Shown piece after piece: positions 8,877 to 20,947 of a DNA stretch of 61,790 bases. A program made the position numbers and the translations under genes. The DNA comes from Oscillospiraceae bacterium (GTDB taxonomy: Bacteria; Bacillota; Clostridia; Oscillospirales; Ruminococcaceae): positions 1 through 61,790 of the forward strand of contig JAFXJT010000048.1 in NCBI GenBank assembly GCA_017532085.1, given 5' to 3'. The notes beneath the pieces are model-generated. The model was not told where the DNA came from, did not search any database, and saw only the letters and a program-made list of their open reading frames with translations. Position 1 is the first letter of the stretch. Each line of letters starts with the position of its first letter.

Positions 8877-11018
8877 TTATTTTGCCTGATCGGCAGTGGT
8901 AAATCCATCGGTCTGACCGGTCAGATAGAGCTGCAGCAGCACGAGATCTGCAACGGTAACATCAGCAGCTTGGTTTACATCAGCCGCAAGCTCCTGCAGC
9001 GGATCCGTAAAGCCATATAACAAACCGCGTTTTGCAAGGGTCAGATCAATGCCGTCAATTCTGCCATCGTTGTTGAGATCACCGAGCGTTACGCTGGGCT
9101 GACCAGCACCTTCAATCTGAGTGCCTTCGATTGCGCCAATGATATCGTCAGCGTAGAAATCGAACGTGCCCTCAGCGCTTTCGAGATACAATCTGAGATC
9201 GGTAGCGCCTTCGGGGATTGTGTAGGATTCATTTGCAAGTTGGGTCCAGGTTCCGTTGACCGCAACTGCAGTTGCAATGGTAGAATACTGTGTTTCGCCT
9301 TGGGAATCGGTATATTCAAGCTTCAGATAAACGGTTTCGGCAGAAGAGCCATCCACTTGCATGACATTCGCACTGAAGCTGTAAGCTTCACCGGGCTTGA
9401 ATACCGAGGTGCTGAGGGTACGCAATGTGCCATTCCAAGAGCCGGTGCGTCCCGAGACCAGGAGCGACTGACTTCCGGCATATGCTTCAGCAGCGGAAGT
9501 TTTGACGGAAGCGGCACCGCGTCCGGACCAGTTTTCAGTACCGTTTTCAAATGTGCTGTGGAAATAGTATCCGTTTTCATCAGGTTCATTGGCCTGGGAT
9601 TCAAATTGCCACCAATCCACATTGAAGAGGAATCCGCCGCCGCCCTTGAATACAAGGTAGAGATCCTGTGTACCGGATGCACCGCTGATTGTGGTGGAAA
9701 CGGTTTTCCAGTTCTGCCATCCGCCGGTACCGGGAACATCGCAGGTACCGATCAATGTACCGCTTACACTACCCAAGCGCAGCTCGATGGTGCCGCCTTG
9801 TTCTGCGGAAGAGACACTGGCAAGAAAGCTGGTAGCACCTTCTGCAAAATCAACTTTGCTGAGCATCAGATAGTCGTTGGATTCAATATTGGCAATGTTG
9901 ATGCCGCCTGCCGAGCAAACTTCAGTTTCCAAACCGGATTCCCAGCAGATTGTTTCGGCTTCGACACGCTCAAAGGGATTGAGCATAGCGATTTGTTTCG
10001 GACCTTCCTTGGAGCGTTCAATTTTAGGGATAGATCCATCTTGCCCATAGGTGAATTCTTCTACGCAGACGGAACGAGTAAAGCCGCCGCCGCCCGGCAG
10101 ATTACCGGTGTGATAGAAGAAATAGGATTTGCCTCGGAAATCGCAGACACCGGGATGGTTTGTAAAGCTTCCGCCGCCGGAAGTCATAATCTCACCTCTG
10201 AAGGTCCAAGGACCGGTGGGGGAGGAACTGGTAGAATAATGAATTGTTTCCGGAATACCGGATGCGGCATACACAAGATAATAGAGATTGTTGCGTTTAT
10301 AGAACCAAGGACCTTCTTCATATAAAGTCTGATGGCGTTCATCGCCGCCGCTTCGTGTGCCGAATGCAGAAGTTGTCATATCCACTTTATTGACATTGCC
10401 GGAATAGGAGATCATATCCTCATTGAGCTTCACATAATAAAGCTGAGGATTACCGAAATACAGATATGCCTGACCATCCTCATCCACAAAGGCGGTAGGA
10501 TCGATATAATCCCAGTTAGGACCGATCAGAGGCTTGCCAAGAGCATCCTTAAAGGGACCCTCAGGAGAATCCGCAACAGCAACACCAATTGCACGGCCGC
10601 CGGTTGCGGCAGGCACCAGAGTTACATACATATAGAATTTGCCGTTGCGCTCGACACATTGAGCAGCCCAAGCGGTATTTTCTTCCGCCCAAGAGAAATC
10701 TGTGCCGGAAAGAACGACACCGTGATCCGTCCAGTTCTGCATATCCGTACTGGAATAGCATTTCCAGTCAGGCATAGTAAAATAAGTAGAACCGTCAGCA
10801 TCATGGCTGGTATAAACATAGCAGGTATTGTCATAAACCATAGGCGCAGGGTCAGCGGTATAAACGGTCTGCGCAATGGGATTGGTTGCAAATGCAGATT
10901 GCGGCAGCAGCATACAGGTCGTGATGACTGAGTACACGGCTGCAATTGCTGCGGACAGTCTGCGTTTGACTTGGCAGCGAGTTGGTTTTCTCTTGATATA
11001 TCCTCTTTCTGTTTTCAT
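8877..11018 (-). CDS. Cellulosomal GH43 glycosidase (arabinofuranosidase/xylosidase type) with CBM6, CBM4/22-like domain and dockerin
   Basis: This 713-residue secreted enzyme has a basic N-terminus and signal peptide ending near SAFA (residue 44). The GH43 five-bladed propeller follows (about 50-345) with the family acids in place: Asp56 (ADPAP), Asp173 (IDPTAF) and Glu235 (EEGPW). A CBM6 (about 346-473) follows, then a beta-sandwich like CBM4/9 or CBM22 (about 484-632) and a C-terminal dockerin (about 643-703) with calcium loops starting DLNNDGRID and DVNQAADVT; the second loop has Ala at a ligand position. Likely substrate is arabinoxylan or related hemicellulose. GGGGGAA precedes the ATG. 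Confidence 0.93.
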   Translation of the reverse strand: MKTERGYIKRKPTRCQVKRRLSAAIAAVYSVITTCMLLPQSAFATNPIAQTVYTADPAPMVYDNTCYVYTSHDADGSTYFTMPDWKCYSSTDMQNWTDHGVVLSGTDFSWAEENTAWAAQCVERNGKFYMYVTLVPAATGGRAIGVAVADSPEGPFKDALGKPLIGPNWDYIDPTAFVDEDGQAYLYFGNPQLYYVKLNEDMISYSGNVNKVDMTTSAFGTRSGGDERHQTLYEEGPWFYKRNNLYYLVYAASGIPETIHYSTSSSPTGPWTFRGEIMTSGGGSFTNHPGVCDFRGKSYFFYHTGNLPGGGGFTRSVCVEEFTYGQDGSIPKIERSKEGPKQIAMLNPFERVEAETICWESGLETEVCSAGGINIANIESNDYLMLSKVDFAEGATSFLASVSSAEQGGTIELRLGSVSGTLIGTCDVPGTGGWQNWKTVSTTISGASGTQDLYLVFKGGGGFLFNVDWWQFESQANEPDENGYYFHSTFENGTENWSGRGAASVKTSAAEAYAGSQSLLVSGRTGSWNGTLRTLSTSVFKPGEAYSFSANVMQVDGSSAETVYLKLEYTDSQGETQYSTIATAVAVNGTWTQLANESYTIPEGATDLRLYLESAEGTFDFYADDIIGAIEGTQIEGAGQPSVTLGDLNNDGRIDGIDLTLAKRGLLYGFTDPLQELAADVNQAADVTVADLVLLQLYLTGQTDGFTTADQAK

Positions 11019-13252: not shown

Positions 13253-13633
13253 ATGAAAGAAACCAGATTTTATCTTTGTGAGCATTGCGGCAATCTTGTT
13301 GGCGTGATTCATGATGCAGGGGTACCGCTGGTATGCTGCGGTCAGAAAATGCGGCATTTGGAGCCGGGTACTGTTGAAGCCAGTGCGGAGAAGCATATTC
13401 CGGTGGTGCAGATCAATGGCAATTCTGTGATGGTTACCGTAGGCTCGGTTCTGCATCCCATGACAGAGGAACATAGCATCACCTGGGTTTATCTGCAGAC
13501 CGATCGCGGCGGTCAGCGAAAGAATCTGCTGCCCGGTCAGGAGCCTGTGGTAACCTTTGCACTGGAGGATGAGACTCCGGTTGCAGTGTATGCTTATTGT
13601 AATCTGCATGGCTTGTGGAAAGCAGATATATAA
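13253..13633 (+). CDS. dfx: Desulfoferrodoxin (superoxide reductase)
   Basis: This 126-residue protein has an N-terminal desulforedoxin iron centre (Cys9, Cys12, Cys28, Cys29 in LCEHC and VCCG) and a C-terminal superoxide reductase centre with four His and one Cys ligands (EKHIP, LHPMTEEHSITW, CNLHG). It reduces superoxide to peroxide without making oxygen, normally with electrons from rubredoxin, which is encoded next. AAGGAGG precedes the ATG, 21 bases after the flavodiiron stop. Confidence 0.95.
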   Translation: MKETRFYLCEHCGNLVGVIHDAGVPLVCCGQKMRHLEPGTVEASAEKHIPVVQINGNSVMVTVGSVLHPMTEEHSITWVYLQTDRGGQRKNLLPGQEPVVTFALEDETPVAVYAYCNLHGLWKADI

Positions 13634-13656
13634 ATTGTGATTAGGAGGAAATAACA

Positions 13657-13815
13657 ATGAAATTTGTATGTGACGCTTGCGGCTGGGAGTATGATGAGGC
13701 AGTTGGTGCACCGGATCTGGGAATTGCACCGGGTACCAAGTTTGAGGATCTGCCCGATGATTTCGAGTGCCCGCTTTGCGGCGTAGGCAAGGATATGTTC
13801 AGTTCTGCGGAGTAA
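13657..13815 (+). CDS. Rubredoxin
   Basis: This small gene encodes 52 residues with the two iron-binding pairs CDAC (5-8) and CPLC (38-41), plus the usual GWEYDEAVG and DDFECP segments. It is a one-iron electron carrier in the cytoplasm and is the likely donor to the superoxide reductase and flavodiiron protein encoded just before it. TTAGGAGG lies eight bases before the ATG. The CDS is short enough to be missed by automated length cut-offs. Confidence 0.95.
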
Positions 13816-13841
13816 GTGCAGAACAGATCAAGAAGAGAAAA

Positions 13842-13888
13842 GTCCCATTGCTGTGAAACCGATTGGTCATATGCAGCAATGGGATTTT
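13842..13888 (+). terminator. Terminator of the fprA-dfx-rubredoxin operon
   Basis: TCCCATTGCTG (13843-13853) pairs with CAGCAATGGGA (13874-13884) and is followed by TTTT. The loop is long, about 20 bases. Confidence 0.7.
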
Positions 13889-13952
13889 CCTATGATTCGA
13901 TGATGCATGCGTTTTTTTTTTGAGAGTTTTTGTTAAAATTCTCACAATCGCA

Positions 13953-13981
13953 TTGACAATCGGGCAAAGTTGTGATAGTAT
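13953..13981 (+). promoter_or_regulatory. Promoter of the gat operon
   Basis: TTGACA (13953-13958) is followed 17 bases later by TAGTAT (13976-13981). The transcript would have a leader of about 85 bases with a small hairpin (GCATTCCTC/GAGGATGC) before gatC. Confidence 0.7.
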
Positions 13982-14070
13982 TATAAGTGTTTTTTTGAGC
14001 ATTCCTCAGAGATGAGGATGCATGATATGATCAGAATCCAAACCTGCTGAATGGATAAAAGGAGAATGCT

Positions 14071-14352
14071 ATGAATCATGAAACATTGAGAAGACTGACA
14101 TTGCTCAATCAGCTTTCATTAACCGATGCGCAAAAGGAAGATATCATTGCTTTTTTTGCACGTCAGGAACAAGGGCTTGCCGCATTGAATGTCGTTGATA
14201 CCGAATCTGTTGAGCGAATGGTTCATGTGATGCCGATTCTGACTGTAGTACGTGAGGATGTGGCAGCACAGCCGTTTACACGAGAAGCATTGCAAAGCGG
14301 CGCACCGGATGCCGGTGAAGGCTATTGGCGAGTACCTCGTGTAGTGGAATGA
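14071..14352 (+). CDS. gatC: Aspartyl/glutamyl-tRNA amidotransferase subunit C
   Basis: This 93-residue protein matches the GatC family, including the C-terminal YWRVPRVVE ending and the helical N-terminus. In GatCAB it wraps around the GatA-GatB interface and stabilises the complex that converts Glu-tRNA(Gln) and/or Asp-tRNA(Asn) to the amide form. AAAGGAG lies before the ATG. It is the first gene of gatC-gatA-gatB, with 24 bases to the gatA-like start. Confidence 0.9.
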   Translation: MNHETLRRLTLLNQLSLTDAQKEDIIAFFARQEQGLAALNVVDTESVERMVHVMPILTVVREDVAAQPFTREALQSGAPDAGEGYWRVPRVVE

Positions 14353-14376
14353 TTTTAGTTGAGGAGTGTAGTGTAT

Positions 14377-15579
14377 ATGAAATTGTATACATCAAAAGCA
14401 GAAACTGCAGCTGCCTCTGTCGTGGTTGTAGATGATATGATTCTGACCAAGGAGATGCCGACAGCTGCCGGCTCAAAGATGCTGGAAGGCTATCGGAGTC
14501 TGTTTGATGCAGAGATGATCACCCGCTTGCATGCCGCTGGCTATGAGATTGGCGGCAAGGCTGCTGTTGGTGAGTTTGCCATTGATCTGGTAGGCGAAAC
14601 AGCATATGATGGTGCTTGTGTGGCTGATGGAATCCTGCGCAATGCCGCTGCTGAGATTATCAAAGCAGGAGAGGCAAAAGCAGTCGTAGGGCTTGATGTC
14701 AATGGATCGGTACGACGCGCAGCAGCGCAAAACGGATTGATCAGTGTCAAGCCGACCTATGGTACTGTTTCACGATACGGAACAGTGCCGGTGGCTTGCT
14801 CCGGCGAAACGGTCAGTGTTATGGCAAAAACGGCAGCAGATTGCCGTGAAATTCTGGAAGCAATTGCGGGGCATGATGATAAAGATGGTACCAGTCTTTC
14901 CGAGGAATGCTGTGCACAGATCAAATCGGGGGGCAGTATTGCCAAGCCTGCAAAGGTAGCTGTGATTACCGGCTGCAATCTGACACCGGATGCAGAGGCT
15001 GCGGCAAAGCTTTCTGCGTTTGGGGCGATGCTGGAACAAAATGGAATTTCGGTTACCGCAGTAGATGCCGGTGTGCTGACAACTGCATCTGCCGCTTGGA
15101 ACATCTTGATGAGTGCCGAGCTTTGCAATAATGTGTCTCGTTACGACGGGATCAAATATGGCTATCGTACAGAGAATTTTGAGAACATTGATGAACTGTA
15201 TACCAATAGCCGTACTGAGGCATTCGGTGTACTTTTGAAAACAGCAATTCTGTATGGTTCTGATGCGCTTTCCAGTGAGAATTATATGAAGGTATATGAT
15301 AAAGCACTGCGAATCCGTCGTGTCATTGCCGATGCGTTTGCGGCATTGTTTGCGCAATACGATGCAGTGCTGATGCCTGCCTGCTCCAAGATGGTATATA
15401 CCGAGGCAGATGTGCAAGCGGATCGTTATATTTCCTTTGCTGAAAACTGTTATACCGCACCGGCATCCATCACGGGATTGCCTGTTGTCGTTGCCGGTGG
15501 TGTACAAATGATTGGCAAGGCATTTGCGGAACCGATGCTGTTTGCAATGGCGGAGCTGTATGAAAAGGAGGGCAAATAA
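14377..15579 (+). CDS. gatA: GatA-like amidase subunit with depleted catalytic signature
   Basis: This 400-residue protein is clearly GatA-related: SKMLEGY, GLDVNGSVRRAA, LISVKPTYGTVSRYGTVP and EAIAGHDDKD align with family positions. It is about 80 residues short of usual GatA (roughly 480): most of the N-terminal helical region is missing. The catalytic Lys of the KDN motif is replaced by Asp19 (VVDDMILTK). The Gly/Ser-rich GGSSGGS loop that carries the cis-Ser is replaced by ADGILRN before AAAEIIKAG. Only the nucleophile-equivalent Ser111 (NGSVR) remains. Glutaminase activity is therefore doubtful. An in-frame TTG at 14359 is too close to gatC; GAGGAG ten bases before ATG 14377 sets the start. 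gatB follows after 2 bases. Confidence 0.85.
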   Translation: MKLYTSKAETAAASVVVVDDMILTKEMPTAAGSKMLEGYRSLFDAEMITRLHAAGYEIGGKAAVGEFAIDLVGETAYDGACVADGILRNAAAEIIKAGEAKAVVGLDVNGSVRRAAAQNGLISVKPTYGTVSRYGTVPVACSGETVSVMAKTAADCREILEAIAGHDDKDGTSLSEECCAQIKSGGSIAKPAKVAVITGCNLTPDAEAAAKLSAFGAMLEQNGISVTAVDAGVLTTASAAWNILMSAELCNNVSRYDGIKYGYRTENFENIDELYTNSRTEAFGVLLKTAILYGSDALSSENYMKVYDKALRIRRVIADAFAALFAQYDAVLMPACSKMVYTEADVQADRYISFAENCYTAPASITGLPVVVAGGVQMIGKAFAEPMLFAMAELYEKEGK

Positions 15580-15581
15580 TC

Positions 15582-17024
15582 ATGCGTTATGAGACGGTAA
15601 TTGGTCTGGAAGTGCACGTAGAGCTTGCAACAGAATCCAAGATTTTCTGTTCCTGCTCGGCAAAATTCGGCGCCGGTCCGAATGAGCATGTTTGTCCTGC
15701 CTGCTGCGGTATGCCGGGTATGCTGCCTGTTGTCAATAAACGTGTGGTAGATTTGGGTATGACAGCCGGTATGATGCTGAACTGTCATATCAACCGCACC
15801 ACAACTTTTGATAAGAAAAGCTATTATTATCCTGATTTGCCCTGTGCTTATCAGACCACCCAGTGGTTTGCACCTGTTGCTGTGAATGGTTGCGTGGAGA
15901 TTGAGACCTCTAAAGGCAAAAAGAAGGTGCGCATCAAGCAGATTCATATGGAGGAGGATGCCGGCAAGCTGGTGCATGATATCATGCCTGATACTACCCA
16001 TGTGGATTTCAACCGAACCAGCGTACCGTTGATTGAGATTGTCAGCCAGCCGGATCTTTCCGGCGCAGAGGAGGTTATTGCCTATCTGGAGCGTCTGCAT
16101 GCTCTGCTGCGTTTTGCCAAGGTATCCGATTGCCGTTGGGAGCAGGGTTCCATGCGTTGTGATGTGAATCTCTCGGTTCGTCCGGAGGGCAGTTCAGAGC
16201 TTGGTGTGCGTACCGAGATGAAGAATATGAATTCTTTGACAGCCATTGCAAGAGCGATCGAGTATGAAACAGCAAGACATATTGACGCTCTGGAAAATGG
16301 AACAGAGGTCTTGGTGCAGGAGACTCGCCGTTGGGATGATGTCAAGGGTAAGAGCTATGCAATGCGGAATAAGGAAACTGCCGGTGATTATCGATATTTC
16401 CCTGATCCCAATGTAATGCCTGTGGTCATTGATGATGCATGGTATGCTGCCATCGAGGCATCGTTGCCTGAGCTGCCGGAGGAGAAGCGTGCACGGTATA
16501 TCAGCGAGTTGGGTCTGAGCGAATATGATGCTGCGCAATTGACCCAGAGCAGAGCACTCTGTGATTGCTTTGAGGATGCGGTATCTGTCTGCGGCAAAGC
16601 AAAGGATGCTGCTAACTGGATCAATTCTGAGGTTATGAACATTCTCAATGCACGCAAAATGAACTTTGATATGCTGCATATTGATGGCAAATCTCTTGGT
16701 GCATTGATTCTTCTGGTTGCTGACGGCAAGGTGGGAAGAGCCAATGGCAAGAAAGTACTTGCAGCAATGTTTGATGATACTACCATTGATCCTGCTGTGT
16801 ATGCTGAGGAAAATGGCTTGATTGTCTCTCATGATACGGGTATGATTGATGCAGTGATCAAAGAGGCAATTTCATCGGATCCCAAAGCGGTTGCTGATTA
16901 CAAGAGCGGCAAAGAAAAAGCGATCATGGCATTATTTGGAAAGTGCATGAAGCAGCTCAAGGGCAATTGTGACCCACAGGTTCTGCATACCATGCTGATT
17001 GATGCCATCAAGGCAACAGAATAA
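15582..17024 (+). CDS. gatB: Aspartyl/glutamyl-tRNA amidotransferase subunit B
   Basis: This 480-residue protein is a full-length GatB. It has the opening TVIGLEVHVEL, the Zn-type cysteine cluster (FCSCS and VCPACC), the YYYPDLPCAYQ segment, the HMEEDAGK nucleotide/transamidation motif, and a C-terminal YqeY-like tRNA-binding tail. GatB phosphorylates the misacylated tRNA and accepts ammonia. All catalytic-region motifs look intact, in contrast to the preceding GatA-like gene, which suggests the complex is still under selection. A strong terminator follows. Confidence 0.95.
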   Translation: MRYETVIGLEVHVELATESKIFCSCSAKFGAGPNEHVCPACCGMPGMLPVVNKRVVDLGMTAGMMLNCHINRTTTFDKKSYYYPDLPCAYQTTQWFAPVAVNGCVEIETSKGKKKVRIKQIHMEEDAGKLVHDIMPDTTHVDFNRTSVPLIEIVSQPDLSGAEEVIAYLERLHALLRFAKVSDCRWEQGSMRCDVNLSVRPEGSSELGVRTEMKNMNSLTAIARAIEYETARHIDALENGTEVLVQETRRWDDVKGKSYAMRNKETAGDYRYFPDPNVMPVVIDDAWYAAIEASLPELPEEKRARYISELGLSEYDAAQLTQSRALCDCFEDAVSVCGKAKDAANWINSEVMNILNARKMNFDMLHIDGKSLGALILLVADGKVGRANGKKVLAAMFDDTTIDPAVYAEENGLIVSHDTGMIDAVIKEAISSDPKAVADYKSGKEKAIMALFGKCMKQLKGNCDPQVLHTMLIDAIKATE

Positions 17025-18424: not shown

Positions 18425-20947
18425 TTATGCAGTTTCGATACTATCCGCTTGCTGGAGATTCAGCAATTCCACAGCTTGCTCTCTCATTTTGTATTTCAAA
18501 ATTTTTCCGGCTACATTCATCGGGAATTCTTTAACGAACACCACATAGCGAGGAGTTTTGCACTTATCCATATGTGTGCGTACAAATTCCTTCAGATCCT
18601 CCTCAGAGCAGGTTGCGTGTTCATGGGGAATGACACAGGCCATAATTTCCTCGCCATACTGGGCATCGGGAACACCAATGACCTGAACATCTTTTACCTC
18701 AGGATGCGTATAGAGGAAGTCCTCAATTTCCTTAGGATAAATGTTTTCGCCGCCACGGATAATCATATCCTTAATACGGCCGGTAATCTTGAAATTGCCA
18801 TCGGGCAGGCGGCGAGCCAGATCGCCGGAATGGAGCCAGCCGTCTTGATCAATGGCAGCAGCGGTAGCTTCGGGCATTTTGTAATAGCCCTTCATAATGT
18901 TATAGCCGCGTGCACAGAATTCGCCGTCCACATTATCGGGCAGCTCTTCACCGGTATCGGGATCCACGATTTTGCATTCTACACCGAAGATAGGACCTCC
19001 GACTGTATTGACACGAGTCTCAATGGAATCGGTGGTTTTGCTCATCGTAGTTGCAGGAGAAGCCTCGGTTTGTCCGTAGGTGATGCAAATTTCGGACATA
19101 TGCATCTTTTCGATGACTTCCTCCATGGTTTTAATGGGACAAGGAGATCCTGCCATAATGCCGGTACGCATATAGGAGAAATCGGTTTTATCGAAGTCCT
19201 CATGACCGAGCATAGCAATGAACATGGTAGGAACACCATGGAAGCAGGTGATTTTCTCTTTATTGATACAAGCGAGACCCTTGCGAGGAGAGAACGCAGT
19301 GATCGGGCTCATGGTAACGCCATGGGTCACAGAGGCAGTCATCGCCAATACCATACCAAAGCAATGGAACATAGGAACCTGGATCATCATACGGTCAGCA
19401 GTAGAAAGATCCATGCAGTCACCGATGGCCTTACCATTGTTCACGACGTTATAATGTGTGAGCATAACGCCCTTAGGGAAGCCGGTGGTGCCGGAGGTAT
19501 ACTGCATATTGGCAACATCATCCTTTTGGATGGTGCGGCGGCGTTTTTCCACTTCTGTAAGCGGCACACTGCGTGAGAGTGCAACGGCTTCATCCCAAGT
19601 ATAGCATCCGGGCTGACGGCTTTCGACCGTGATGATATTTTTGAGGAAGGGGAACTTTTCGGATTTCAATTCACCGGGCTTGCAGGCAGCAAGCTCAGGA
19701 CAGAGAGTATGAATGATCTGGTTATAATCGGTACCCTTGAAGCCATCCACCATAACCAGAGTATGAGTATCGGATTGTTTGAGCAAGTATTCGGTCTCGT
19801 GGATTTTGTTTCCGGTATTGACTGTTACGAGAACCGCACCGATTTTGGTAGTTGCCCAGAAGGTGATATACCAAGCAGGAACATTGGTTGCCCAGATCGC
19901 AACGTGATCTCCCTTGCCGACGCCCATTGCAATGAGGGATCGTGCAAAGGTATCCACATCGTCGCGAAATTCGGGATAGGTGCGGGTATAATCCAGCTCG
20001 GTATAGCGGAACGCATACTGAGTAGGGAATTCTTCACAGATTCGATCCAGCACATCGGGGAAGGTATAGGAAATCAAACGCTCTTTCGGCCAGACATACT
20101 GACCGGTACCTCTGTTGTTGGTTTGCAGACTATGCTTATGCTTATGACGGTATTTTGCCATATAATCGGCAAAGCATGGGAAAACGAGAGCTGCATCGGA
20201 AAGGCTGGGCATCCAGCGCTTGACCCATTCCAGAGAGACATAGCCGGTATAATGGATGGTTCCCAGTGCTTCCATCATAGCATCCAGGGGCATATCTCCG
20301 TCGCCGGTCATTTTATAGACCAGCTGACCGTTTTCCATCGCACTGTCTTTCGCATGGACGAACTTAATGAATTCTCCCAGATTGGCAACAGTGGTTTCAG
20401 GAGATTCTTTGCTGTAACGATAAGGGTGATGGATATCCCAAAGAGCAGCAACACGGCGATGACCGACCTTTTCCAACAGAGCTCTTAAGCGGTTTGTATC
20501 GGAATAAACGCCATTGGTTTCCACCAAAAGAGTGACATTGTATTGTTCAGCCTCCGGGATCAGTTGGGTAAGAGCAGAGGCAACAAAATCGTCATCAATG
20601 GCAGCAGAGGGTGCAGGATTACGATCACCCAGAATACGAATGAAAGGCGTATTCAGAGCCTGAGCAAGTTTCATACACTCCAGCAGCTCCTCATGATTCT
20701 TTTCCGCAGCAGAAGGGTCACCAAGGCAGCAGTTTGAGCTGACGCAGGGGATTTCCAGATGGAGTTTTGCAAGCTTTGCACGTGTTTTTTCTAATTGAGC
20801 ACCGGTAAAGGGTTTGCTTCGATAGGGATCCACAGGCATACCGAGTGAGCGCAATTCAATACCGTCAAACCCCAGATCCTTTGCCATGGAATAGACATCA
20901 GACCAATCAAAATCGGGACAACCCAGTGTAGAAAAACAGATTTTCAT
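18425..20947 (-). CDS. Fusion of sugar isomerase/epimerase-like TIM barrel and AMP-forming acyl-CoA synthetase
   Basis: This 840-residue bifunctional protein has a xylose-isomerase-like TIM barrel in residues 1 to about 275, with the metal-site acids and histidines visible (LLVETNG, LWDIHHPY, FVHAKD, VSLEW). After a Lys/His-rich linker, residues of about 293-835 form an ANL-family acyl-CoA synthetase with the AMP/phosphate loop YTSGTTGFPKG (about 487), ITYGQTEAS, the hinge GRIKDMIIRGGENIYPKEIE and the C-terminal catalytic Lys in GKILKYK. Both halves look intact. It is third in an operon behind an XRE-cupin regulator and a second acyl-CoA synthetase, 31 bases apart. The substrates are unknown; a hydroxy-acid or sugar-acid route is only a guess. 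Confidence 0.9.
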   Translation of the reverse strand: MKICFSTLGCPDFDWSDVYSMAKDLGFDGIELRSLGMPVDPYRSKPFTGAQLEKTRAKLAKLHLEIPCVSSNCCLGDPSAAEKNHEELLECMKLAQALNTPFIRILGDRNPAPSAAIDDDFVASALTQLIPEAEQYNVTLLVETNGVYSDTNRLRALLEKVGHRRVAALWDIHHPYRYSKESPETTVANLGEFIKFVHAKDSAMENGQLVYKMTGDGDMPLDAMMEALGTIHYTGYVSLEWVKRWMPSLSDAALVFPCFADYMAKYRHKHKHSLQTNNRGTGQYVWPKERLISYTFPDVLDRICEEFPTQYAFRYTELDYTRTYPEFRDDVDTFARSLIAMGVGKGDHVAIWATNVPAWYITFWATTKIGAVLVTVNTGNKIHETEYLLKQSDTHTLVMVDGFKGTDYNQIIHTLCPELAACKPGELKSEKFPFLKNIITVESRQPGCYTWDEAVALSRSVPLTEVEKRRRTIQKDDVANMQYTSGTTGFPKGVMLTHYNVVNNGKAIGDCMDLSTADRMMIQVPMFHCFGMVLAMTASVTHGVTMSPITAFSPRKGLACINKEKITCFHGVPTMFIAMLGHEDFDKTDFSYMRTGIMAGSPCPIKTMEEVIEKMHMSEICITYGQTEASPATTMSKTTDSIETRVNTVGGPIFGVECKIVDPDTGEELPDNVDGEFCARGYNIMKGYYKMPEATAAAIDQDGWLHSGDLARRLPDGNFKITGRIKDMIIRGGENIYPKEIEDFLYTHPEVKDVQVIGVPDAQYGEEIMACVIPHEHATCSEEDLKEFVRTHMDKCKTPRYVVFVKEFPMNVAGKILKYKMREQAVELLNLQQADSIETA

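What the first reader, a model, noticed from the sequence alone, without database searches (positions are those of the whole stretch)
14071..17024. GatA without its catalytic lysine and cis-serine inside an otherwise intact gatCAB operon
The GatA-like protein keeps family framework segments (SKMLEGY, KPTYGTVSRYG, EAIAGHD) and one serine (Ser111, NGSVR). The Lys of the KDN motif is replaced by Asp19, the GGSSGGS loop is replaced by ADGILRN, and about 80 N-terminal and internal residues are absent. GatC and GatB look normal and the spacing is tight, which speaks against simple decay. In known GatCAB, GatA releases ammonia from glutamine. This version may be a structural subunit, with ammonia coming directly from the medium or from another amidase.
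Basis: partly seen in the sequence, partly recalled or inferred. Interest (0 to 1): 0.75.

Follow-up and report, generated by a model that had tools for sequence, protein, structure and literature searches.

The report
GatCAB with a dead glutaminase subunit
Many gut bacteria carry a version of the enzyme that finishes asparagine (and here perhaps glutamine) on tRNA whose ammonia-releasing subunit has lost its catalytic machinery yet stays strongly conserved, which suggests that the enzyme takes its nitrogen from somewhere other than glutamine.

Summary
Confirmed. In gatC-gatA-gatB (14071-17024) the GatA-like protein lacks the catalytic Lys (Asp19), the GGSSGG loop with the cis-Ser and the glutamine-binding residues; Ser111 alone remains. 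It is not decay: it belongs to one clade of ~400-aa proteins (GatA*) in gut Clostridia. Of 86 sequences aligned, 0 have the Lys and 33 the nucleophile Ser; dN/dS is 0.05-0.17 in 25 close pairs; the AlphaFold model is a confident GatA fold. In 62 of 69 assessable relatives aspS lies directly upstream; 7 of 10 such loci searched have a T-box. Of 50 named genomes tested, 45 lack AsnRS and 39 lack canonical GatA above cut-off, so GatCA*B is often the only visible route to Asn-tRNA(Asn). The window's genome and three genus mates, all incomplete (79-88%), show neither GlnRS nor canonical GatA. Best reading: a working amidotransferase whose GatA* is a glutaminase-dead structural subunit, fed by free ammonia or another amidase. 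An asparaginase gene adjoins the operon in 16 of 80 loci, not in the window. No activity was tested. Eight searches of the held open-licence papers listed no description.

The parts
13953..13981 (+). sigma-70-type promoter-like site (TTGACA-17-TAGTAT, TG before the second hexamer) upstream of gatC; no T-box found in the leader
   Evidence: 10 of 12 consensus positions; 11 sites found in the region against 6.2 expected in shuffles, so a consensus match only; 13600-14120, E up to 1
14071..14352 (+). gatC, 93 aa
   Evidence: TIGR00135 57.2 bits, cut-off 47.1
14377..15579 (+). gatA*: GatA without glutaminase site, 400 aa (alternative start TTG 14359)
   Evidence: AlphaFold model pLDDT 93.4, GatA fold, rmsd 1.8 over 398 residues
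14431..14433 (+). codon of Asp19, at the position of the catalytic Lys
14707..14709 (+). codon of Ser111, position of the nucleophile (Ser here, another residue in 53 of 86 sequences)
15582..17024 (+). gatB, 480 aa, active-site residues conserved

Best explanation
The operon encodes a working tRNA-dependent amidotransferase, GatCA*B. GatA* keeps the amidase fold, its place between GatC and GatB and presumably the mouth of the ammonia tunnel, but can no longer hydrolyse glutamine. GatB activates the misacylated tRNA and amidates it with ammonia that GatA* does not make: most likely free ammonia, in some lineages perhaps ammonia from a neighbouring asparaginase. In most of the clade the product is Asn-tRNA(Asn), made with a partner AspRS. 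In the window's own species, where no GlnRS or canonical GatA was found, the same complex probably also makes Gln-tRNA(Gln). Shown: loss of catalytic and glutamine-site residues, conservation, predicted fold, operon and gene-content pattern. Inferred: activity, tunnel use and ammonia source.
For: Lys lost in 86 of 86, cis-Ser loop deleted or rewritten, canonical R365 and D432 each in under 10% of 86, nucleophile Ser in 33 of 86. dN/dS 0.05-0.17 in the 25 closest pairs. 88 degenerate sequences form one clade against 25 canonical ones, support 0.98. AlphaFold pLDDT 93.4, GatA fold. GatB keeps 77 positions conserved in both groups, among them E10, H12, K79, E124, E125, D126 (80 against 11 sequences). 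aspS directly upstream in 62 of 69 assessable loci. T-box before aspS in 7 of 10 aspS-gat loci searched. 45 of 50 genomes lack AsnRS over cut-off, as do 36 of the 39 without canonical GatA (caveats in the full report). Genus survey of 30: 4 GatA*, 25 other GatA (21 near full length, 4 fragments), 1 no match, 0 with both; none of the 25 genus members G000-G024 has GlnRS over cut-off. tRNA-Gln has A73 in 3 of 3 GatA*-only genus mates read and G73, a GlnRS determinant, in 10 of 10 GlnRS genomes read. NH4Cl serves as donor in vitro, and one GatF truncation of yeast GatFAB increased its use (PMC4027206, passages).
Against: No activity measured. The four GatA*-only genus members are 79-88% complete, and a close GatA* relative (G041, locus L066) also has canonical GatA. 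In the own assembly only one AspRS was seen, of the type not found in the operons; the other class II hit read is LysRS. Five of 50 GatA* genomes have AsnRS, and G029 has GatA* with both GlnRS and AsnRS, so GatCA*B is not needed for charging there. Asp19, Asn109, Arg114, Trp241, Cys250 and Asn251 are switched and conserved at 94-100%, more than a plain scaffold seems to need.
Confidence: 0.73

Rival explanations
1. Ammonia is delivered by a dedicated partner amidase, a type-I-like asparaginase encoded with the operon, analogous to GatD in archaeal GatDE. It would split Asn into Asp for AspRS and NH3 for GatB.
For: Asparaginase on the same strand directly downstream of gatB in 11 of 67 assessable loci and directly upstream of aspS in 5 of 56, 16 of 80 loci in all; also next to gatB in G035. 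Of the relatives in which both canonical gatA and asparaginase were hit, 0 of 19 have them on one contig, though many contigs are short. The six operonic asparaginases scanned score on both asparaginase and GatD models, below all cut-offs.
Against: 64 of 80 loci show no adjacent asparaginase (some are cut by contig ends). G034 and G029 have GatA* and no asparaginase hit at all; asparaginase is common in canonical relatives. In the window's genome and in G006, G011 and G013 it lies on another contig.
Confidence: 0.2
2. GatCA*B has changed its role, for example binding or discriminating Asp-tRNA(Asn) or regulating a canonical complex, and no longer amidates.
For: 11 of 50 GatA* genomes also carry canonical GatA and 5 of 50 AsnRS; G029 has GatA* with GlnRS and AsnRS; G025 has a GatA* fused to a GatC-like N-terminus (by eye) and its only gatB hit lies elsewhere.
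Against: 36 of 39 genomes without canonical GatA over cut-off also lack AsnRS over cut-off, so something must make Asn-tRNA(Asn); GatB active-site residues are unchanged.
Confidence: 0.1
3. GatA* still hydrolyses an amide with a rebuilt active site (Asp19, Asn109, Arg114, Trp241, Cys250, Asn251).
For: Those positions are switched relative to canonical GatA and conserved at 94-100% of 86 sequences.
Against: No Lys/cis-Ser/Ser set survives; the nucleophile position is A, T, Y, M or E in 53 of 86; the glutamine-binding Arg and Asp positions are lost.
Confidence: 0.1
4. A decaying gene, or an assembly or frameshift artefact.
For: Shortened, and far under the family cut-off.
Against: Open frame in a tight operon, 80 further loci of the same form, low dN/dS among relatives, confident predicted fold.
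Confidence: 0.02

Closest known systems
Bacterial GatCAB amidotransferase (TIGR00132/133/135; structures 3h0l, 2df4, 3kfu, 4wj3)
   Different: No Lys, no cis-Ser loop, no glutamine-binding Arg/Asp, dispensable nucleophile Ser; 400 residues against 464-485 in the solved chains
tRNA-dependent Asn pathway with AspRS and GatCAB under T-box control (Clostridium acetobutylicum, Saad 2012 and 2013; seen only as citations and a sentence in PMC4206432)
   Same: AspRS encoded with gatCAB and a T-box before it in many relatives
   Different: GatA is without its catalytic residues; the window's own locus has neither aspS nor a T-box
Archaeal GatDE
   Same: GatB-like enzyme fed by an asparaginase-family protein; an asparaginase neighbours part of the clade
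   Different: GatA* and GatC are kept; the asparaginase is neither universal nor linked in the window, and the six scanned score below the GatD cut-off
Mammalian carbamoyl-phosphate synthetase I (recalled, no call)
   Same: A glutamine amidotransferase whose glutaminase part is kept but dead and which uses free ammonia
   Different: Unrelated enzyme and fold
AspRS-GatC fusion (NCBIfam NF009460)
   Same: 14 of the 80 loci have an AspRS-GatC fusion
   Different: The one scanned (L134) scores 457 bits against that model's cut-off of 1379; here followed by GatA*

Membership tests
GatA equivalog TIGR00132 | score above curated cut-off (481.1 bits) | tested here: not met
   245.3 bits
GatA glutaminase | catalytic Lys of KDN | tested here: not met
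   Asp19; 0 of 86 sequences have Lys, 25 of 25 canonical ones do
GatA glutaminase | cis-Ser in the GGSSGG loop | tested here: not met
   loop deleted or replaced; Ser at the column in 5 of 86
GatA glutaminase | nucleophile Ser | tested here: met
   Ser111 present in the window protein, but Ser in only 33 of 86 sequences
GatA glutaminase | glutamine-binding Arg and Asp | tested here: not met
   canonical R365 and D432 (L010 numbering) each in under 10% of 86; roles from PMC4027206 passages, correspondence by residue spacing and recalled numbering
Amidase signature PF01425 / GatA fold | Pfam score over cut-off; fold | tested here: met
   181.7 bits against 27; predicted model matches GatA chains best
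GatCAB complex | gatC and gatB partners, GatB active site conserved | tested here: met
GatCAB complex | amidation of misacylated tRNA | not testable with these tools
   needs purified enzyme
AspRS-linked Asn operon | aspS and T-box with gatCAB | tested here: not met
   absent at the window; in relatives aspS 62 of 69 assessable, T-box 7 of 10 searched
GatDE-like asparaginase coupling | asparaginase encoded with the operon | tested here: not met
   on another contig in the own genome; adjacent in 16 of 80 relatives

The most novel reading that the evidence does not exclude
GatCA*B is a new class of tRNA-dependent amidotransferase that uses ammonia from outside its own GatA. In part of the clade it forms an Asn-sensing unit (T-box, AspRS, GatCA*B, asparaginase) that turns free asparagine into Asp plus NH3 and rebuilds it on tRNA(Asn). 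In the window's lineage it has become the only enzyme for both Asn-tRNA and Gln-tRNA. The former active site, with newly conserved Asp19, Asn109, Arg114, Trp241 and Cys250-Asn251, has become an ammonium-accepting antechamber of the tunnel.
Probability: 0.2. Interest if true: 0.88.

Novelty: new variant of a known kind. Interest (0 to 1): 0.78.

Why it matters
GatCAB is a textbook case of glutaminase-coupled amidation on tRNA, needed in bacteria that lack GlnRS or AsnRS. A widespread form whose glutaminase is dead would mean that lineages of gut bacteria make Asn-tRNA, and perhaps Gln-tRNA, with nitrogen not drawn from glutamine through GatA, tying protein synthesis to ambient ammonia or to asparagine breakdown. 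It would be a natural separation-of-function variant for studying the ammonia tunnel, and a warning that annotation as GatA does not imply glutaminase. One carrier is an isolate (Fusibacillus kribbianus YH-rum2234), so it can be tested.

Tried and rejected
Considered and rejected: decay or an artefact (open frame, 80 like loci, low dN/dS); a second gatA in the own assembly (none found; the assembly is 83% complete); an alignment that rescues Lys or cis-Ser (none with 86 homologues and 25 canonical sequences); asparaginase as a universal partner (no hit in G034 and G029, common in canonical genomes); a T-box at the window (none at E up to 1); replacement of canonical gatCAB in place (in the stretches compared, canonical and GatA* loci share no neighbour beyond the gat genes at blastp E 1e-20 and over 35% identity).

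Led nowhere or left open: PHROGs gives one unnamed family. In the own assembly one AspRS was read (L246, motif NKGG) and the other class II hit is LysRS; no AspRS of the operon type was found there. The own genome's tRNA-Gln and tRNA-Asn were not among the tRNAs read. In one search the longest-ORF rule picked wrong frames for L249, L251, L252 and L261; these are left out of the AspRS statements. Asparagine synthetases and other glutamine amidotransferases were not searched. Literature searches were made, seen as listings with abstract starts (one search listed 25 of 414, mostly on GATA transcription factors); of three papers (PMC4027206, PMC4206432, PMC9976931) I saw passages.

The confidence of the best explanation went from 0.74 to 0.73 because of the AspRS gap in the own assembly.

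Recalled, not from a call: S. aureus GatA numbering, the His of DHGG as a mark of non-discriminating AspRS, the carbamoyl-phosphate synthetase I comparison, high ammonia in the herbivore gut, and GatDE as an asparaginase-type system apart from a citation title.
Full report
What is there. The window holds gatC (14071-14352), a GatA-like gene (ATG 14377, 400 aa; an upstream TTG at 14359 is possible) and gatB (15582-17024), tightly spaced on the + strand. A sigma-70-like site TTGACA-17-TAGTAT lies at 13953-13981 (a consensus match only). No T-box was found in the leader. GatC and GatB pass curated NCBIfam cut-offs; the GatA-like protein reaches 245 of the 481 bits asked by TIGR00132, though Pfam Amidase is clear (181.7 bits against 27). 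The own assembly (1.98 Mb, 82 contigs, 83% complete) has no other PF01425 protein.

The catalytic site is gone. The Lys of KDN is Asp in 81, Glu in 4 and Asn in 1 of 86, and Lys in 25 of 25 canonical ones. The GGSSGG segment is deleted or rewritten; Ser stands at the cis-Ser column in 5 of 86, in a gapped stretch. The nucleophile column is S 33, A 30, T 13, Y 5, M 4, E 1. Canonical Arg365 and Asp432 (L010 numbering), which by spacing match the glutamine-binding Arg and Asp described for yeast GatFAB (PMC4027206, passages), are each found in under 10% of the 86. At the same time 14 sites have switched to another residue that is conserved at 90% or more in this group, among them Asp19, Asn109, Arg114, Trp241, Cys250 and Asn251, which points to a new constraint.

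The setting in relatives. Of 69 loci with enough upstream sequence, 62 have aspS directly before gatC; in 14 loci AspRS and GatC are fused. All 62 AspRS hits over 60% identity with an intact N-terminus carry DHGG, as do second AspRS copies of G006, G013 and G014, while the other AspRS read in G000, G006, G003 and G014 has NKGG or DKGG. From memory, that His marks non-discriminating AspRS. A T-box precedes aspS in 7 of 10 aspS-gat loci searched (L051 yes and L048 no; L067, L073, L084, L107, L110 and L113 yes, L134 and L136 no). In the three alignments shown the specifier reads by eye as AAC, Asn. L136 has, just before its AspRS-GatC fusion, a further protein that passes the NCBIfam model aspartate--tRNA(Asn) ligase (432 bits, cut-off 353). 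An asparaginase gene lies on the same strand directly after gatB in 11 of 67 assessable loci and directly before aspS in 5 of 56, 16 of 80 in all. The window and its three genus mates with GatA* have neither aspS nor asparaginase next to the genes.

Who needs it. In 50 of the 80 named genomes (one call takes at most 50), canonical GatA over cut-off is in 11, GlnRS over cut-off in 38, AsnRS over cut-off in 5. Of the 39 without canonical GatA, 36 also lack AsnRS and 32 have GlnRS. Caveats: G056 has a canonical-like fragment at a contig end; G075 has a 460-aa frame hit in two pieces that may be canonical; G065 has a short AsnRS fragment at a contig end; G088 and G090 have a protein at 203-208 bits on the AsnRS model, under the cut-off, which in G088 (L136) is the aspartate--tRNA(Asn) ligase just named and in G090 was not checked. 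Most of these genomes thus show GatCA*B as the only visible maker of Asn-tRNA(Asn). Gln is served by GlnRS or canonical GatCAB in 43 of 50. Seven show neither over cut-off: G056; G043 and G049, which carry the same GatA* contigs as G013 and G011; G053 and G080, without any hit on the GlnRS model and so plainly incomplete; G070 and G087, whose tRNA-Gln has G73. Five of the 50 have AsnRS as well.

The window's genus. Of 30 genomes held, 4 have GatA* (G000, G006, G011, G013; 79-88% complete), 21 have a near full-length other GatA, 4 only fragments, one no match, and none has both. None of the 25 members G000-G024 has GlnRS or AsnRS over cut-off, though G007 has a 211-bit partial AsnRS-like hit at a contig end. 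If misses were independent, missing one gene in all four by incompleteness has a chance near 0.0007 (product of the missing fractions). tRNA-Gln adds to this: in 3 of 3 GatA*-only mates read (G006, G011, G013; G011 partly by eye) and 6 of 6 canonical members read, the discriminator is A73; in 10 of 10 GlnRS genomes read it is G73 (G051 by eye), a GlnRS determinant (PMC9976931, table passage). G73 also occurs in G025, G063, G070, G087 and one G041 gene without GlnRS over cut-off, so only A73 is informative. All 12 genomes with tRNA-Asn read have U1-A72, the pair GatCAB recognises (PMC4206432, passages). Against the sole-route claim: the close GatA* relative G041 (L066) has a canonical gatA-gatB as well, and the own assembly shows no AspRS of the operon type.

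Mechanism. Shown: loss of the glutaminase site, conservation, predicted fold, partners, gene content. Inferred: GatA* holds GatC and GatB together and keeps the tunnel mouth, and GatB uses ammonia from elsewhere. Free ammonia is the simplest source: NH4Cl serves as donor in vitro, and a GatF truncation that lowered glutaminase raised NH4Cl use in yeast GatFAB (PMC4027206, abstract and passages). The asparaginase neighbour offers a second source that would also feed Asp to AspRS, but it is patchy, and G034 and G029 show none at all. G029 has GatA* with both GlnRS and AsnRS, so charging alone does not explain it there.

Known or not. By its tested features this is a variant of GatCAB, not a member of the GatA glutaminase equivalog. 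Eight searches of the held papers listed none describing it; the two T-box papers on C. acetobutylicum were not held and were seen only as citations.

Noticed in passing
L126, L129-L131, L133-L137, L140-L144: AspRS-GatC fusion proteins (frames of about 630-740 aa) directly before gatA* in 14 of 80 loci.
   Followed up: partly
L136:4213-5589: A further, archaeal-type AspRS (NCBIfam aspartate--tRNA(Asn) ligase over cut-off) directly before the AspRS-GatC fusion, so two AspRS genes in one neighbourhood.
   Followed up: partly
L054:7335-8573 (G025): GatC-like N-terminus (by eye) fused to a degenerate GatA, with no gatB next to it; the genome has a canonical gatAB elsewhere.
   Followed up: no
L052:6857-7738 (G029): Shortest GatA* read (293 aa), lacking the nucleophile region, after aspS and gatC, in a genome with both GlnRS and AsnRS.
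   Followed up: partly
L267:8354-9586, L268:8344-9885, L269:8122-9234, L270:10898-11677: In four canonical members of the window's genus a related gene of unknown function sits between gatA and gatB.
   Followed up: no
tRNA-Gln genes in loci L146-L215: Discriminator A73 was seen only in genomes without GlnRS, G73 in all 10 GlnRS genomes read: a possible marker of the Gln-tRNA route.
   Followed up: partly
window 18425-20947 (-): 840-aa ORF that by eye joins a sugar-isomerase-like N-terminus to an acyl-CoA-synthetase-like C-terminus.
   Followed up: no
window 8877-11018 (-): Secreted glycoside-hydrolase-like protein with a dockerin-like C-terminus (by eye), upstream of the gat region.
   Followed up: no
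L136:14409-14640: A T-box (97 bits) about 3.8 kb downstream of gatB.
   Followed up: no
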